Of a DNA stretch of 64,000 nt, positions 23,898-44,255 are shown one piece after another (the stretch's first letter is position 1; each line of letters begins with the position of its first letter). Below the pieces are notes generated by a model. It was given only the letters and a program-made list of their open reading frames with translations. It made no database searches and was not told the DNA's origin. The position numbers were made by a program, and so were the translations under genes. Source of the DNA: Luteibacter sp. (lineage in GTDB: Bacteria; Pseudomonadota; Gammaproteobacteria; Xanthomonadales; Rhodanobacteraceae); NCBI RefSeq assembly GCF_009912395.1, contig NZ_WNDO01000001.1, positions 1 to 64,000 of the forward strand, in the 5' to 3' direction.

Positions 23898-24287
23898 ATG
23901 CGCGCCCTGCTCCTCGTCCTACTCGGTCTCGCCATCGGCGCGATCGGAGCGACATTCGCCCTGTCGGCGTTGCGGCAGGGCACGCCCTACCACAAGGCCG
24001 TGATGGCGGTGATGCAGCATCACATGGGCGCGCTGCGCGAAGACGTGCGGGCGAACCGCTGCGAAGCCAAGGGCACCGCGGCCCACCTGGGACGCATGCG
24101 GCAGGACGCGGGCGACATCGGGGCGGCCTTTCCCGACATGGACAAGGGCTTTCACGACGCTACCGACCGGCTGACCGCATCGCTGGACCGCGCCCTGACG
24201 GCGGCTCCGGGCGACTGTGCGGCACTTGGTGCGGCGCTGGCACCGATCGGTGAGTCCTGCCAGTCCTGTCACCGGCAGTACCGATGA
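23898..24287 (+). CDS. Exported monohaem c-type cytochrome-like protein (cytochrome c'-like)
   Basis: This 129-residue protein has an N-terminal membrane/signal segment (MRALLLVLLGLAIGAIG). It has a single haem-binding motif 'CQSCH' only six residues from the end, the usual place in four-helix cytochrome c' or c556 proteins. A further Cys pair stands in 'NRCEAKG' and 'GDCAAL'. It ends 34 bases before the quorum-sensing kinase start and may be cotranscribed with it, but no functional link is known. An upstream ATG at 23880 would add six residues before the signal. Confidence 0.7.
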   Translation: MRALLLVLLGLAIGAIGATFALSALRQGTPYHKAVMAVMQHHMGALREDVRANRCEAKGTAAHLGRMRQDAGDIGAAFPDMDKGFHDATDRLTASLDRALTAAPGDCAALGAALAPIGESCQSCHRQYR

Positions 24288-24321
24288 AGGGTGTTCGCCG
24301 CGAGGGCCCGGGGAGGCCAAG

Positions 24322-25698
24322 ATGAGCCCAATGGACGACAAGCCGCCAACGCAGAAACCCTTCGTCCACATGCAGTGGTGGTTGCTCCTGCGCGCGATGG
24401 CGCGCTTCGAGACCACCATGTTCCTGCGCACACGCTACTCACAGCCCAAGATGGTGGCGATCGGCGTGGTGGGCAGCTTCTCGCTCGCGGTGTACTACCC
24501 GATCTGGGCCTACCTGTTCCCGCAGCCGTACGAAAACCTGCCGATGCGGCTGATCTGCAGCGCCACGTTCATACCACTGGCGTTGCTGCCGTGGTGGCCG
24601 CGACGCCTGCGTACCCACCTGCCCACTTACTGGTATTTCGCGATGACCGTCGCGATGCCGTTCTTCGTGGGCTACATGACCCTGCGCAACGCCACGCCCG
24701 CCTGGCTGATGACCCACCTGGCGTGCGTGATGCTGCTGATGATGCTGTTTGACATCGCCAGTTTCTTCTTGGTGTTCACCCTGGGCAGCCTGCTCGCCGC
24801 CTTGGTCTTCGCCCTGTCGCCGGACGCGCACCTGCACGGCCAGACCATGCTGGAATACATTCCCCTGCTTTTGTTCGGCATGGTGGGCGGCGCCACCTGC
24901 ACGGTGTCGTCCAACATGGCCGAGCAATCGCGGATCGACGCCCTCACGGCAGCATCGAACAACATCGCCCACGAGCTTCGCACGCCGCTGGGCTCGTTGC
25001 GCATCGCCGCACGAGCCGTGGCCCGCTTCATGCCCGACCTGCTGCGCAGCCACCGCCTTGCCGAAAGCGAGGGCCTGCCGGTGCCGGAAATCCGCACCCA
25101 GAACCTGCATGCGCTGGAGCGCAGCATCGGGGTCATGGAGCGCGAGGTCACCTACGCGAACACCATCATCGACATGCTCCTTCTCTCGGCCCGGCCCATC
25201 GGCGAGGTGCCGCTGTCACCCCTGAGCGCCCGCGACTGCGTGGAGCAGGCCCTGCGCCGCTTTCCCTATGGCTCCCGGGCGGAGCGCGAGCGGATCGTGC
25301 TGTCACCGAACGGCGACTTCGCTCTCAGGGGCGAGGAGACGCTCGTGGTGCATATCCTCTTCAACCTGCTGAGGAATGCGCTTTTCCATACCGATCGCGC
25401 CGGCAAGGGCGATATCCGGATCTTCGTAGAACCTGACGAACCGGCCAACCGGATCCGCGTGTATGACACCGGCCCGGGCATCCCCCCGGATGTCCTTCCC
25501 CGCATATTCAACCGTTTCTACTCCTACGCCAGCACCAGCGCAGGCGCCGGCACCGTGACCGGCCTGGGCATAGGCCTCGCTTTTTGCCGCGCGGCGATGG
25601 AGCATATGGGCGGTAGCATCGTCTGCCGAACCAACCTGGGTGAGTTCACCGAATTCATCCTAACTTTCCCGCATCCAGATTCCGGGGACCGGCAGTGA
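24322..25698 (+). CDS. CqsS/LqsS-like sensor histidine kinase for an alpha-hydroxyketone signal
   Basis: This 458-residue protein has about six membrane segments (residues ~45-195) and a kinase core. The H-box is 'NNIAHELRTPLGSL' with His217, the N-box 'LFNLLRNALFH', G1 'YDTGPGIPP' and G2 'TGLGIGLAF'. The sensor part tracks Vibrio CqsS as I remember it: 'YYPIWAYLFPQPYENLPMR' here against 'YYFIWEYWFPQSYENLGLR' there, and similar 'EYIPLLLF'. It lacks the C-terminal receiver of Vibrio CqsS, as Legionella LqsS does. GGGAGG lies 5 bases before the ATG. Its stop overlaps the regulator's start, and the synthase-like gene follows. Confidence 0.88.
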   Translation: MSPMDDKPPTQKPFVHMQWWLLLRAMARFETTMFLRTRYSQPKMVAIGVVGSFSLAVYYPIWAYLFPQPYENLPMRLICSATFIPLALLPWWPRRLRTHLPTYWYFAMTVAMPFFVGYMTLRNATPAWLMTHLACVMLLMMLFDIASFFLVFTLGSLLAALVFALSPDAHLHGQTMLEYIPLLLFGMVGGATCTVSSNMAEQSRIDALTAASNNIAHELRTPLGSLRIAARAVARFMPDLLRSHRLAESEGLPVPEIRTQNLHALERSIGVMEREVTYANTIIDMLLLSARPIGEVPLSPLSARDCVEQALRRFPYGSRAERERIVLSPNGDFALRGEETLVVHILFNLLRNALFHTDRAGKGDIRIFVEPDEPANRIRVYDTGPGIPPDVLPRIFNRFYSYASTSAGAGTVTGLGIGLAFCRAAMEHMGGSIVCRTNLGEFTEFILTFPHPDSGDRQ

Positions 25699-26735
25699 TG
25701 ACGTTGAACTCGCAGGGCGATATCCAGCCCTTCCATTTTCCCACCACCACGGTGCTGGTGGACGACCACGAGGAATACCTCGACGTCGTGCCGCTGCTGC
25801 TCGACCCCATGGTCCGCGTACGCACCTTCAGCTCCCCGCGCAGCGCGCTTGCCACCCTGGGCAACAACGGTAGCCGTCCCGTGCCCGGCGGCGGCTGGCT
25901 CTATCGCTGGAAGGACCGCCCATCCGAGACGCAGGAACTGGTGGCGCTGGACATCGACTCCATCCATCGTGTGGTCTACGACCCCGAGCGATTCGCCGAA
26001 ATCTCGGTGGTGGTGGTCGACCAGGCCATGCCGGAAATGGACGGCATCACGTTCTGCAAGCGCCTGCCAAATCCCCATATCGGCAAAATTCTTCTCACTG
26101 GCCGGGCCGATGACGCCACGGCCATCGACGCGTTCAATTCGGGCGTGATCGACCGCTTCATCCGCAAGAGCGACCCGCTCGCGATCGAGAAACTGCAAAC
26201 GGCCATCGTCGAGCTGCAGCGCCGCTACTTCGACCGTGCCAGCGCCTTCGTCGCCGAGACGCTCGCGCTGGGCAACTTCCGATTCCTGCGCGATCCGGCG
26301 TTCCGCGAAGTACTTCAGAGCGTCACCGCGACGTTCCAGCCCGTGGAGTGCTACGTGCACTGCAACCCGACGGGCCTGTTGTTGGTGGATGCATGGGGAA
26401 TCGGTCGGTTCCTGCTGGTCCAGACCGACGAAGACCTGCGTACGCACTATGAAATTGCGGCAGATCTGGGCGCCCCCACGGCGGTTCTCGTTGCGCTGCG
26501 CAGCGGCGAGGCCCTGCCCTGGTTCGCATCTCGCGACGGCTTCTACCACAAGGGCGTGGAGAACCCGGAAGCGCACATGTACCCCGCAACGGCGGTTTCA
26601 GGCGAGCAGTGGTACTACTACGCGCTCATCGATGACGTGGAACGGTTCCGGCTCCAGCACGTGAAATCCTACCGTACGTGGCTGCGTGAACAGGATCTGA
26701 GCCTGTCAGCAGATAGTCGCCCACGCTTCATCTGA
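25698..26735 (+). CDS. LqsR-like response regulator with a non-DNA-binding output region
   Basis: In this 345-residue protein the receiver acidic pair is Asp22-Asp23 ('VLVDDHEEY'), the phospho-acceptor Asp108 ('VVVVDQAMPEMDG'), then 'LLTGRADD' and Lys in 'FIRKSDP'. About 40 extra residues (roughly 55-100) stretch the receiver between helix 1 and strand 3. From memory, Legionella LqsR also uses Asp108 and also lacks a helix-turn-helix. The C-terminal ~180 residues match no output domain I know. The ATG overlaps the kinase stop by one base, so it is coupled to the kinase. It most likely relays the alpha-hydroxyketone signal. Confidence 0.8.
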   Translation: MTLNSQGDIQPFHFPTTTVLVDDHEEYLDVVPLLLDPMVRVRTFSSPRSALATLGNNGSRPVPGGGWLYRWKDRPSETQELVALDIDSIHRVVYDPERFAEISVVVVDQAMPEMDGITFCKRLPNPHIGKILLTGRADDATAIDAFNSGVIDRFIRKSDPLAIEKLQTAIVELQRRYFDRASAFVAETLALGNFRFLRDPAFREVLQSVTATFQPVECYVHCNPTGLLLVDAWGIGRFLLVQTDEDLRTHYEIAADLGAPTAVLVALRSGEALPWFASRDGFYHKGVENPEAHMYPATAVSGEQWYYYALIDDVERFRLQHVKSYRTWLREQDLSLSADSRPRFI

Positions 26736-27003: not shown

Positions 27004-28107
27004 ATGACCATGGAGAAAGTATCCGTTCTGCACCGCATCGCGAAGGCGCCGGCACTCCCTGATTTCGTCCATCGCAGGGTAGAGAAATTCCACAACGAAC
27101 GCGTCGCCATCGACTGGGGTGGTCGTCACATTTTGCGCGGCCGCCGTCCCCAGGCCGATGCGTTGATGCTCCAGAGCAACGACTACCTGGCGATCGCCGG
27201 ACACCCGGCCATCGTGGAAGCCCAACGCGACGCTCTTAGCAAGGGCGGCCTGGGCATGATGATGTCCGCCCTGTTCCAACAGGATGCCGACGAGCCGATC
27301 CATCGCGCCGAACGCGAACTGGCTCGCGCGGTGGGTAGCGAGGACGGCATCCTCGCCCAATCCGGCTATGCCGCCAACGTCGGCCTCATCCAGTCCATTG
27401 CGGAAGATCGCATACCTGTCTACGTCGACATGCTGGCCCACGCGTCGCTGTGGGAAGGCGTTCGCAGTGCGGGCGCCAAGGCCGTATCCATCCTGCACAA
27501 CGACGTGACCCATCTCGAACGGCAGATCCTGCGCAACGGCCCGGGCGTGATCGTGGTCGATTCGGTCTACAGCACCAACGGCAGCCTTGCGCCCCTGGAA
27601 CGTATCGCGGATATCTCCGAGGCGAACGGCTGCGTACTCATCGTGGATGAGTCGCACTCGCTTGGTACCCACGGCAACCTCGGTGAAGGCCTGGTGGCCA
27701 GCCTCGGACTCAACGACCGGGTACATTTCATCACCGCCAGCCTCGCCAAGGCCTACTGCAGCCGCGCCGGCTTCATCGCCTGCACCACAAGATTCAAGGA
27801 CTACTTCGGTTGCGAGGCACTCCCCGCCATCTTCAGCTCCTCGTTGCTTCCGCACGAACTGGCCGGCCTCAGCGCCTCCCATCGCGTCATCCAGGCGGAA
27901 GGCTGGCGTCGCCATCGATTGCGCGACGTGACCCGGCATGTGCGACGGGAATTGCTGGCGTTGGGCTACCCCATCGCAGATGGCACCGAGCAGATCGTGG
28001 CCCTCGAAGGCGGCGGTGAACTGCTGACCGCCCACTTTCGCGACGTCATGGAGCGGTACGGCATCTTTGGTTCCGTGTTCAGCGCACCGGCGACCACCCT
28101 GAATTGA
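27004..28107 (+). CDS. CqsA/LqsA-like alpha-hydroxyketone autoinducer synthase, cut short by an in-frame TGA
   Basis: This PLP enzyme of the alpha-oxoamine synthase family would join an acyl-CoA to an amino acid to give CAI-1/LAI-1-type signals. It matches Vibrio CqsA along its length as I recall it: 'LQSNDYLA', 'LSQSG'-like 'LAQSGYAANVGL', 'FAHMSLWEG'-like 'LAHASLWEG', 'GPGIIVVDS'-like 'GPGVIVVDS', 'VDESHSLGTHG', the PLP Lys249 in 'HFITASLAKAY', 'PAIFSSSLLPHE' and 'GIFGSVF'. The frame stops at TGA 28105-28107 after 367 residues, before the conserved C-terminal substrate-binding Arg. A second ATG at 27010 has the better ribosome binding site (AGAGAG). Unless TGA is read through, the product should be inactive. 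Confidence 0.85.
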   Translation: MTMEKVSVLHRIAKAPALPDFVHRRVEKFHNERVAIDWGGRHILRGRRPQADALMLQSNDYLAIAGHPAIVEAQRDALSKGGLGMMMSALFQQDADEPIHRAERELARAVGSEDGILAQSGYAANVGLIQSIAEDRIPVYVDMLAHASLWEGVRSAGAKAVSILHNDVTHLERQILRNGPGVIVVDSVYSTNGSLAPLERIADISEANGCVLIVDESHSLGTHGNLGEGLVASLGLNDRVHFITASLAKAYCSRAGFIACTTRFKDYFGCEALPAIFSSSLLPHELAGLSASHRVIQAEGWRRHRLRDVTRHVRRELLALGYPIADGTEQIVALEGGGELLTAHFRDVMERYGIFGSVFSAPATTLN

Positions 28108-28272
28108 TCGCTGCTACGTCTCACCTTGAACGCAGGCATGAGCGATACGGATGTCGAACGCCTGGTCGACACCTGCCGCGTCGCTCGCGACGAGATGCGC
28201 CTGGACGAATGGAGCGCAAGCCGCCGGGCGGCCCGGGAAGGCGTGCCGCTGCCCGTCACCGAGGTCGCGTGA
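28108..28272 (+). pseudogene. C-terminal remainder of the autoinducer synthase frame, downstream of the TGA
   Basis: The synthase frame continues open for 54 codons to TGA 28270-28272. It starts SLLRLTLNAGMSDTDVERL, which lines up with the CqsA ending 'IIRLSLNSDVNDEQIARI' that I recall, including the substrate-carboxylate-binding Arg. No frameshift is needed, only one changed codon. In the alignment a basic residue (Lys or Arg) occupies the TGA position, so a CGA-to-TGA change is the simplest cause. The conservation suggests that the mutation is recent, that the codon is read through, or that this is a sequence error. Confidence 0.8.
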
Positions 28273-42070: not shown

Positions 42071-42257
42071 TGAACCGTGCGGGACGGCATCGTCGCCCGA
42101 CGTTGCCGTCCCGCCTTGCCGCTCGCGCTACAGTCAGCAACACTGGGGCAGAATCCTGCGTTCAACGGATGAAACCCTGCACACCATGAGCAATGGCTAC
42201 TCGCTCCGCGCCAGCGTCCTCGATGCGCTGATCCGGACGAAATGACCCGACGTCCCC

Positions 42258-44255
42258 ATGCGGGTTGCGCTGCGCAACACCGCGGCCGTCGTGCTGCCGC
42301 TCGCCATCGGCCTCTACAGCGGTCATCCGCAGGTCGGCATCGGCATCGCCGCCGGCGCGCTCGACACCATGTTCTCGGACCAGCCTGGTCCATACCAGCA
42401 ACGCCTCACCCGACTCTTCCTTGCCGCCCTCGCCGCGGCGGCGGCTTCGCTTGTGGGTTTTCTCATCGGCGACCACATCGTGCCCATGAGCATCGCCTGC
42501 GCGATCTGCGGCTTCCTTGGCGGCATGCTCGTAGTGTTCGGACCGGACATCGCCCGCGTGGGCATGACCAGCATGCTCCTGCTGGTGATCACGGCGGCCA
42601 CACCACAAGATGTGCGCGGCGCGTTGTCGGGCGGCGGGTTGATCTTCGCCGGTGGCATGTTGCTGGCCCTGTTCTCGGTCACCGCGTGGCCCTTGCAGCG
42701 CTATCGCCCCGAACGCCTCGCGCTCGCCGACGTGTATCGCGGCCTGGCGGAGCTGGCCCGCAAGCCGCAGAAGGACGGCGAGGCGCCCGGACTCAGCGAC
42801 GCGATGAACACGTTGCAGACCACCCTGCTCGGCCGCTACCACGCGCGCGGCCGCGCCATGGAAGCCTTCCGCGTGCTGCTGGAGCTGGCCGAGCGCATTC
42901 GTCTCGAACTGGTCGCCATGGCCGAGCTGGAAACGCGTCGCGACGGCATGGGCGAAATGTTCCGTAACGATGCGGCGCGCGTGCTCGCCGCCATCGCCGA
43001 AGCGGTCGACGCCGCCGAGCCGCCGCAGCGCGCCGAACGCGCGCTGGCGACCTTGCAGGCCAGTGAGCGCGCCCTGCTCGCCGGCAGCAGCGGCACGGGG
43101 TTGTCCGCCCATATCCAGGCCTTGTCGGGCCAGCTCGCCGCCGTGGTCCGTAACGCGAACTGGGCAGGCAGCCGCGGTGAAGAACGCGCGCAGCGTGCTG
43201 AAACCACGCTGCCCGACACATTGCGCAGCGCCTCGGCGCTATCCACCCTGCGCGCCAACATCACCACGGGCTCGGTGGCCTTTCGTCATGCGGTGCGCTG
43301 CGCGGTGGTGCTCACCCTCGCCTTCGCCGTGTCGCGCTACTACGAACTGCCGCACGGTTACTGGCTGCCGATGACCGCCGCAATCGTGCTTCGCCCGGAC
43401 TTTGCGGCCACGTTCAACTTCGGCCTGCTGCGCGTCGTCGGTACGATTCTCGGCCTGGTACTGACCAGCCTGCTGCTGCGCTTCACGCCGGACGCCACCT
43501 GGGCGCACATTCTGATGCTGGGCGTGCTTTGCGTGATCTTCCGCTACCTCGCCGGCGCGCATTACGGCATCGCCGTCGCCGCGCTGACCGGCACCGTCGT
43601 GGTCCTGCTCGCCTTCGAAGGCGTGGAGTCGAACACGGCCATGCACGACCGCGTGCTCAACACGGCCCTCGGCAGCGGCCTCGCCCTGCTGGCCTATGTG
43701 TTGTGGCCGTCCTGGGAACGGCATCGCGCGCGCAACGCCTTGTCGGACATGCTTTGCGCCTATGCCGACTACCTCGACGCGCTCGTCGTGCCCGCCGATG
43801 CCGGGCGCCGCCACGAGGTTCGTATGGCCACGCGTACGGCGCGAACCAACGCCCTGGCCTCGGTCGATCGCATGCGTACCGAGCCGGGCACCCCGGGCGT
43901 GTTGCAGGAACTGGCGGAGACCCTCTACGCCAACGGCAACCGCCTTGCCCGAACGGCGATGACCCTCGAAGCCCTCATCGACATGGGCGACGTGCCGGAA
44001 GACTGGAAGCACGTCGGCCCGTTCATCCACGAGGCCTCGGTGGAACTGCGCCGCCAGGCCGAGGCGCTGACCCGTACCGAGGGCATTTCCATGCCACCCG
44101 CGCTGCGCGAGCACCAGCGCAACCTGGTCGAAGCGCTGTCGCGCGGCAAGGACCGCGAATTCGCCGATGCCGTAGGCCGCCTCACCGACCGCCTCACCGA
44201 CAACGTCGACACCATCGCGCACGTGGTAACCCGCCGCAGCACCACCCCCTTGTAG
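42258..44255 (+). CDS. FUSC-family membrane transporter (aromatic-acid exporter-like)
   Basis: This 665-residue protein has two clusters of membrane segments (about 1-140 and 345-480), each followed by a cytoplasmic helical region, the FUSC/YccS/AaeB layout. 'TMFSDQPGPYQQRL' near the start and 'YYELPHGYWLPMTAAIVLRPDF' in the second half are family boxes. The chosen ATG has no ribosome binding site. The same frame is open upstream from 42186 apart from a TGA at 42243-42245, so the 5' end may be damaged. The TAG stop lies inside a REP. Confidence 0.8.
   Translation: MRVALRNTAAVVLPLAIGLYSGHPQVGIGIAAGALDTMFSDQPGPYQQRLTRLFLAALAAAAASLVGFLIGDHIVPMSIACAICGFLGGMLVVFGPDIARVGMTSMLLLVITAATPQDVRGALSGGGLIFAGGMLLALFSVTAWPLQRYRPERLALADVYRGLAELARKPQKDGEAPGLSDAMNTLQTTLLGRYHARGRAMEAFRVLLELAERIRLELVAMAELETRRDGMGEMFRNDAARVLAAIAEAVDAAEPPQRAERALATLQASERALLAGSSGTGLSAHIQALSGQLAAVVRNANWAGSRGEERAQRAETTLPDTLRSASALSTLRANITTGSVAFRHAVRCAVVLTLAFAVSRYYELPHGYWLPMTAAIVLRPDFAATFNFGLLRVVGTILGLVLTSLLLRFTPDATWAHILMLGVLCVIFRYLAGAHYGIAVAALTGTVVVLLAFEGVESNTAMHDRVLNTALGSGLALLAYVLWPSWERHRARNALSDMLCAYADYLDALVVPADAGRRHEVRMATRTARTNALASVDRMRTEPGTPGVLQELAETLYANGNRLARTAMTLEALIDMGDVPEDWKHVGPFIHEASVELRRQAEALTRTEGISMPPALREHQRNLVEALSRGKDREFADAVGRLTDRLTDNVDTIAHVVTRRSTTPL

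What the first reader, a model, noticed from the sequence alone, without database searches (positions are those of the whole stretch)
27004..28272. Quorum-sensing autoinducer synthase carries a single in-frame TGA with a conserved tail beyond it
The CqsA/LqsA-like gene stops at TGA 28105-28107, yet the same frame stays open for 54 more codons. That stretch begins SLLRLTLNAGMSDTDVERL, collinear with the end of Vibrio CqsA as I recall it, including the Arg that should hold the substrate carboxylate. The homology continues with no frame change, and a basic residue is expected at the stop, so CGA-to-TGA is the simplest explanation. The likely convergent hairpin comes after the longer frame. Either the strain has recently lost signal synthesis while keeping an intact sensor and regulator (a listener that does not speak), or the TGA is read through, or it is a sequence error.
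Basis: partly seen in the sequence, partly recalled or inferred. Interest (0 to 1): 0.9.

Follow-up and report, generated by a model that had tools for sequence, protein, structure and literature searches.

The report
Quorum-signal synthase gene cut short
In one Luteibacter genome the gene that makes a bacterial chemical signal is interrupted by a stop codon that no examined relative shares, while the genes that sense the signal look intact; this most likely marks a very recent loss of signalling.

Summary
A CqsA/LqsA/JqsA-family synthase gene (27004-28272) in a Luteibacter genome carries one in-frame TGA at 28105-28107; the next 54 codons are the family's conserved C-terminus. All 25 orthologues inspected encode arginine there and continue, as do 120 of 120 listed database proteins. 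The lost part holds a second arginine present in 120 of 120. Kinase and LqsR-like regulator are intact and constrained. Rates put any loss within about the last 4% of the branch. No selB, no tRNA-Sec, no TCA-anticodon tRNA and no second synthase were found. Wider find: 10 genomes of two sister genera keep the kinase-regulator pair in place, under purifying selection, with the synthase gone, so synthase-less listeners appear to exist in this family.

The parts
24217..25698 (+). CqsS/LqsS-like sensor histidine kinase, open and intact; the start may lie near 24289
   Evidence: Pfam HATPase_c; 95.9% aa identity to L. anthropi, no stop; omega 0.052 on the window branch. That it senses an AHK is inferred from its place beside cqsA
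25695..26735 (+). LqsR-like response regulator, intact; receiver Asp at residue 109
   Evidence: Pfam Response_reg; 98.3% aa identity to L. anthropi; Asp position; omega 0.010
27004..28104 (+). CqsA/LqsA/JqsA-family autoinducer synthase, first 367 codons
   Evidence: NF005526 at 496.1 bits; V. cholerae CqsA 3hqt E 4.6e-91
28105..28107 (+). in-frame TGA where the 25 inspected orthologues encode arginine
28108..28272 (+). remaining 54 codons and the ancestral stop: conserved C-terminus with the RLTLN arginine
   Evidence: in the model of an intact relative this part forms a strand and two helices
28286..28323 (.). strong hairpin between the convergent genes, downstream of the longer frame (no T-run)
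   Evidence: not reported by the terminator scan

Best explanation
The strain carries a very recent nonsense mutation in its alpha-hydroxyketone (AHK) autoinducer synthase gene. The 367-residue product lacks two arginines present in all relatives examined, and the last strand and helices of the C-terminal segment, so it should be unable to make the signal. The adjacent sensor kinase and LqsR-like regulator are intact, so the strain could still respond to AHK made by relatives. Shown: the lesion, its absence from the relatives examined, the intact and constrained sensor pair, and no second synthase in the assembly. Inferred: loss of enzyme activity, retained hearing, and that the base is real rather than an error.
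For: One TGA, no frame change, tail still family-like. 25 of 25 orthologues encode arginine there and continue; arginine at that column and at the one 4 residues on in 120 of 120 listed proteins. In the family survey 35 of 233 genomes have cqsA and only the window's has a stop inside; a class sample adds 6 further genomes without one. Neutral fraction of the window branch for the cqsA body 0.015, interval -0.027 to 0.042. Kinase 95.9% and regulator 98.3% identical to L. anthropi. The other three G000 hits are only 29-31% identical. Model of an intact relative: strand 366-372 and helices 379-396 and 402-419 lie from the stop position on (mean pLDDT 74.5, block 361-370 only 58). In the related enzyme SPT an arginine forms a salt bridge with the substrate carboxylate (PMC6148460 passages).
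Against: One assembly, no reads, no second strain of the species. Apart from the stop the gene looks functional: an intact neighbour (ThiF) gives the same neutral fraction, 0.019, -0.014 to 0.068, which fits an error as well as a recent loss. A second TGA at a conserved arginine lies 14 kb away in another gene; two of the same kind hint at a common cause, such as base errors or read-through. Activity of the truncated protein was not tested.
Confidence: 0.68

Rival explanations
1. The TGA is a base-call or assembly error and the gene is an ordinary intact synthase.
For: A single substitution in a 56-contig draft; no decay elsewhere in the gene: omega 0.049 against 0.035 on the L. anthropi branch, 3 changes in the body and 0 in the tail at positions invariant in the other genus members. 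A second TGA at a conserved arginine in the same window.
Against: Of 134 L. anthropi genes matched in the 334 kb of this genome that I held, only these two show a clean stop; the reverse control gave 3 clean flags of 129 in L. anthropi, not examined further. So the assembly is not visibly worse than the reference. Point errors in short-read consensus are rare (recalled).
Confidence: 0.2
2. The TGA is read through, perhaps as arginine, giving full-length synthase in low or regulated amount.
For: Tail in frame and conserved. Both clean stops are TGA at a conserved arginine, although the arginine codon that is one transition from TGA makes up only about 6% of the codons one transition from a stop (4.3 against 29.4, 3.5 and 14.5 per 1000 for the two glutamine codons and tryptophan, the last counted twice); two cases, noticed afterwards.
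Against: No selB match over the cut-off. The one tRNA-Sec match over threshold is a tRNA-Ser, anticodon TGA. Of 50 tRNA-model places in the genome, 49 are tRNA genes and none has the anticodon TCA; the last (C38:4912) is not a tRNA by ARAGORN. TGA ends 34 of 44 genes counted. No relative examined has the stop, and the FUSC gene has a possible restart ATG right after its TGA.
Confidence: 0.08
3. The truncated protein is still active, or has a changed activity.
For: The body stays open and constrained.
Against: The lost part includes two arginines present in 120 of 120 listed relatives, one aligned with the oxoamine-synthase arginine block, and a strand and two helices. None of the 120 ends here.
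Confidence: 0.03

Closest known systems
CqsA / LqsA / JqsA alpha-hydroxyketone autoinducer synthases
   Same: Same family by curated model and by relation to solved V. cholerae CqsA; beside a sensor kinase and an LqsR-like regulator, as described for Janthinobacterium jqsA-jqsS-jqsR (PMC3566124, abstract and passages).
   Different: Interrupted by a TGA 55 codons before the end of the frame (the TGA codon counted).
LuxR solos such as SdiA (receptor without synthase)
   Same: The principle of hearing without speaking (listing and abstract starts only).
   Different: Another signal class (AHK, not AHL) and a kinase system; in the window the synthase gene is still present but broken.
Kinase-regulator pairs without cqsA in genera g4 and g6 of the same family
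   Same: Same locus order ThiF / kinase / regulator / Mpo1-like / pirin.
   Different: The synthase is cleanly absent (M28 peptidase in its place in the two g4 loci read), and kinase and regulator have diverged far more than their neighbours.

Membership tests
AHK autoinducer synthase (CqsA/LqsA/JqsA, NF005526) | Score over the curated cut-off | tested here: met
   496.1 bits against 428 for the 367-aa piece
AHK autoinducer synthase (CqsA/LqsA/JqsA, NF005526) | Complete C-terminal segment with the conserved arginines | tested here: not met
   Encoded only from the TGA on. A member by descent; an active member is not claimed
AHK autoinducer synthase (CqsA/LqsA/JqsA, NF005526) | Linked sensor kinase and response regulator | tested here: met
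   24217-26735, same order in the relatives compared
AHK autoinducer synthase (CqsA/LqsA/JqsA, NF005526) | Makes an alpha-hydroxyketone | not testable with these tools
   -
LqsR-type response regulator | Receiver Asp near residue 108 and a C-terminal part without known domain | tested here: met
   Asp 109; only Response_reg in Pfam; LqsR D108 in PMC3376566 (passage)
CqsS/LqsS-type sensor kinase | Membrane ligand-binding region that senses an AHK | tested here: inconclusive
   Kinase domains found; a simple hydropathy scan gave two peaks only; ligand not testable
Selenoprotein or suppressed TGA | selB and tRNA-Sec, or a tRNA with anticodon TCA | tested here: not met
   No selB over cut-off; tRNA-Sec match is tRNA-Ser(tga); no TCA among 49 tRNA genes

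The most novel reading that the evidence does not exclude
AHK 'listeners' evolve by losing the synthase while keeping the sensor pair: two sister genera (10 genomes) are old, settled cases whose kinase and regulator have since changed quickly but stay under purifying selection, and this Luteibacter strain is a new, independent case caught within the last few percent of its branch.
Probability: 0.42. Interest if true: 0.62.

Novelty: new member of a known kind. Interest (0 to 1): 0.42.

Why it matters
Receptors without a synthase are well known for AHL signals; [quoted passage not shown] If real, the strain is a natural signal-negative mutant with an intact sensor beside intact relatives, and the two synthase-less genera show where such loss can lead. 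That I found nothing in print rests only on the searches and 66 of one open-access library; the four Luteibacter papers were seen as listings only.

Tried and rejected
Selenocysteine: rejected. Suppressor tRNA with anticodon TCA: none found. TGA as a general sense codon: rejected, 34 of 44 counted genes end in TGA (44 of the 49 genes called: the interrupted gene, three genes without a match and one low-coverage call were left out). A second synthase copy: none in G000, although two other Luteibacter genomes have one.

Searches show that it is a real in-frame TGA at 42243 at an arginine present in all 21 relatives that reach it; my note records this. The odds were changed for that reason (best reading from 0.74 to 0.68).

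The longest-ORF comparison picked shadow frames and was replaced. In one search ten stop flags arose among 134 matched genes; eight do not have 8 of 12 matching residues on both sides of the stop and were set aside as misaligned or non-coding, without checking each in further relatives. The reverse control gave 21 flags, 3 of them clean (two near the gene start), also not checked further. The 'TGA' flags in the regulator of four g6 genomes: in the two loci where a stop was read it lies at residue 340, the natural end; the other two show none in the stretch aligned. Substitution test of the tail alone failed; only the counts are used. The kinase hydropathy scan is not used. The PDB search with the tail alone gave nothing relevant. 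The paper search was swamped by unrelated papers. No fold search was run on the model.

Full report
What is there. The window lies in a 5.39-Mb, 56-contig genome (G000). DNA identity to it is mostly 82-91% in the aligned blocks of the window, so the window strain is another species. The synthase ORF runs 27004-28107 and ends in TGA 28105-28107; the frame then continues for 54 codons to TGA 28270-28272. Both pieces match the one family model NF005526, in order.

Is it a lesion? The 25 best orthologues (22 of the genus, 3 of the family) all encode arginine at the TGA codon and run on to a similar end. Among the 120 listed database proteins (of 3416 hits; 8000 candidates scored), arginine stands at this column in 120 and four residues on in 120, and none ends near it. 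In V. cholerae CqsA the first is lysine and the second arginine, and in related alpha-oxoamine synthases the second falls in an arginine-containing block. PMC6148460 (passages) gives an arginine of serine palmitoyltransferase as partner of the substrate carboxylate; that it is this same column is my reading, not tested by numbering. In a model of an intact relative (19-row alignment, mean pLDDT 74.5), strand 366-372 and helices 379-396 and 402-419 lie from the stop position on; the block 361-370 is weak, pLDDT 58. In the family, 35 of 233 genomes have cqsA (E <= 1e-70) and only the window's has a stop inside; a class sample gave 8 of 369, six of them outside the family, and again only the window's with a stop.

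How recent? On the branch since the split from L. anthropi the cqsA body has omega 0.049 (0.035 on the L. anthropi branch). The fraction of the branch that could have been free of constraint is 0.015, bootstrap interval -0.027 to 0.042 (10 outgroup loci, 60 resamplings; synonymous distances are high, so this is rough). The intact neighbour ThiF gives 0.019 (-0.014 to 0.068), so cqsA does not differ from a working gene by this test. Kinase and regulator show omega 0.052 and 0.010. At positions invariant in the other genus members the window has 3 changes in the body, close together (alignment columns 336, 338, 347), and 0 of 20 in the tail; the other 22 genomes have 0 to 5 in the body. So the gene was under selection until very recently, or still is if the base is an error.

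Error or real? I compared L. anthropi genes with 334 kb of the window's genome: 134 of 247 called genes match (about 49,700 codons). Two clean in-frame stops remain: the one in cqsA, and a TGA at 42243 near the start of a FUSC-family gene, at an arginine present in all 21 relatives that reach it, with a possible restart ATG at 42258. In the reverse direction 3 clean flags arose among 129 matched genes of L. anthropi, not checked further. So interior stops are not plainly commoner in G000. That both of its cases are TGA at arginine is notable, because the arginine codon one transition away from TGA is rare (4.3 per 1000 codons, against 29.4, 3.5 and 14.5 for the glutamine and tryptophan codons); with two cases, seen afterwards, this is a lead and no more. 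No reads and no second strain were available.

Read-through? selB matches are all below the family cut-off. The tRNA-Sec match over threshold (47.2 against 47) is a tRNA-Ser, anticodon TGA. The tRNA model finds 50 places; 49 are tRNA genes and none has the anticodon TCA; the fiftieth, C38:4912 (31.9 bits), is not a tRNA by ARAGORN and matches tmRNA weakly. TGA ends 34 of 44 genes counted. Near-cognate read-through cannot be excluded from sequence.

The wider pattern. The regulator is found in 49 of 233 family genomes at E <= 1e-40, among them all 35 that have the synthase. Ten genomes of two genera (g4: 4, g6: 6) have a 65-67% identical regulator but no synthase match at E <= 1e-70. In all ten the locus keeps the order ThiF / kinase / regulator / Mpo1-like / pirin with the synthase missing between regulator and Mpo1-like gene. 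In the two g4 loci read, the space holds a peptidase-like gene (Pfam M28 on one); in g6 the gap is about 10-160 bases. The kinase His box and receiver Asp are kept in all ten. Pairwise dN/dS in six pairs is 0.07-0.19 for the kinase and 0.03-0.10 for the regulator, against 0.02-0.07 for the neighbour ThiF: purifying, but looser. On trees of flanking genes and of kinase plus regulator the ten form one group (SH-aLRT 90 and 100) and one change of state suffices. Genera with the synthase lie outside (Tahibacter, Mizugakiibacter-like) and as sister (Luteibacter, support 93 on the flanking-gene tree), which favours one loss; the root on Tahibacter was my choice and inner forks are weak, so gain elsewhere is not excluded. 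The stem of the ten is much longer on the kinase-regulator tree (0.39-0.46 shared, then 0.74 and 0.54) than on the flanking-gene tree (0.05, then 0.21 and 0.17), while the Luteibacter stem is 0.12 against 0.25. I read this as faster change of the sensor pair after the synthase was lost; replacement by transfer is an alternative. A protein labelled Dyella sp. is 80% identical to a g4 regulator, so g4 may be near Dyella; g4 and g6 are unnamed here. Four more family genomes (G117, G118, G144, G181) have a 37-38% identical regulator; in the three loci fetched a kinase lies beside it and no synthase was found.

Known background. jqsA-jqsS-jqsR of Janthinobacterium HH01 has the same three gene types and a deletion phenotype (PMC3566124, abstract and passages). 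PMC3376566 (passages) reports lqsR clustered with lqsA and lqsS. A search for cqsA with Luteibacter found no paper. Receptors without synthase are established for AHLs (listing).

Verdict. The finding is a real feature of the assembly and most likely a recent loss-of-function nonsense mutation in a signal synthase. By itself that is an ordinary kind of event; beside the synthase-less sister genera it becomes a useful natural experiment.

Noticed in passing
window 42126-44255: A second in-frame TGA (42243-42245) at an arginine present in all 21 relatives that reach it, near the start of a FUSC-family gene; a possible restart ATG lies at 42258.
   Followed up: partly
L105-L114 (genera g4, g6): CqsS/LqsR-like kinase-regulator pair kept in synteny in 10 genomes that lack cqsA, with long stem branches but purifying selection.
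   Followed up: partly
L115:5976-8274, L116:7594-9889, L117:7505-9872: Distant (33-37%) kinase-regulator pairs without synthase in another gene setting: RecJ-like proteins in all three, SNF2-type helicase in L115 and L116, WGR/ligase proteins in L115 and L117 among those scanned. Possibly a mobile element; not tested.
   Followed up: partly
L098 (G021), L099 (G020): Two Luteibacter genomes carry a second, 55% and 49% identical synthase; no kinase or regulator match in the about 4 kb held around it.
   Followed up: no
L054:8001-8936: A cqsA-like stretch (49% identical) on a contig labelled Streptomyces sp. A1136; transfer or contamination not examined.
   Followed up: no
L206:314-420: A tRNA-like 3' end with a T-arm and CCA (weak tmRNA and tRNA model matches) that ARAGORN does not accept as a tRNA.
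   Followed up: no
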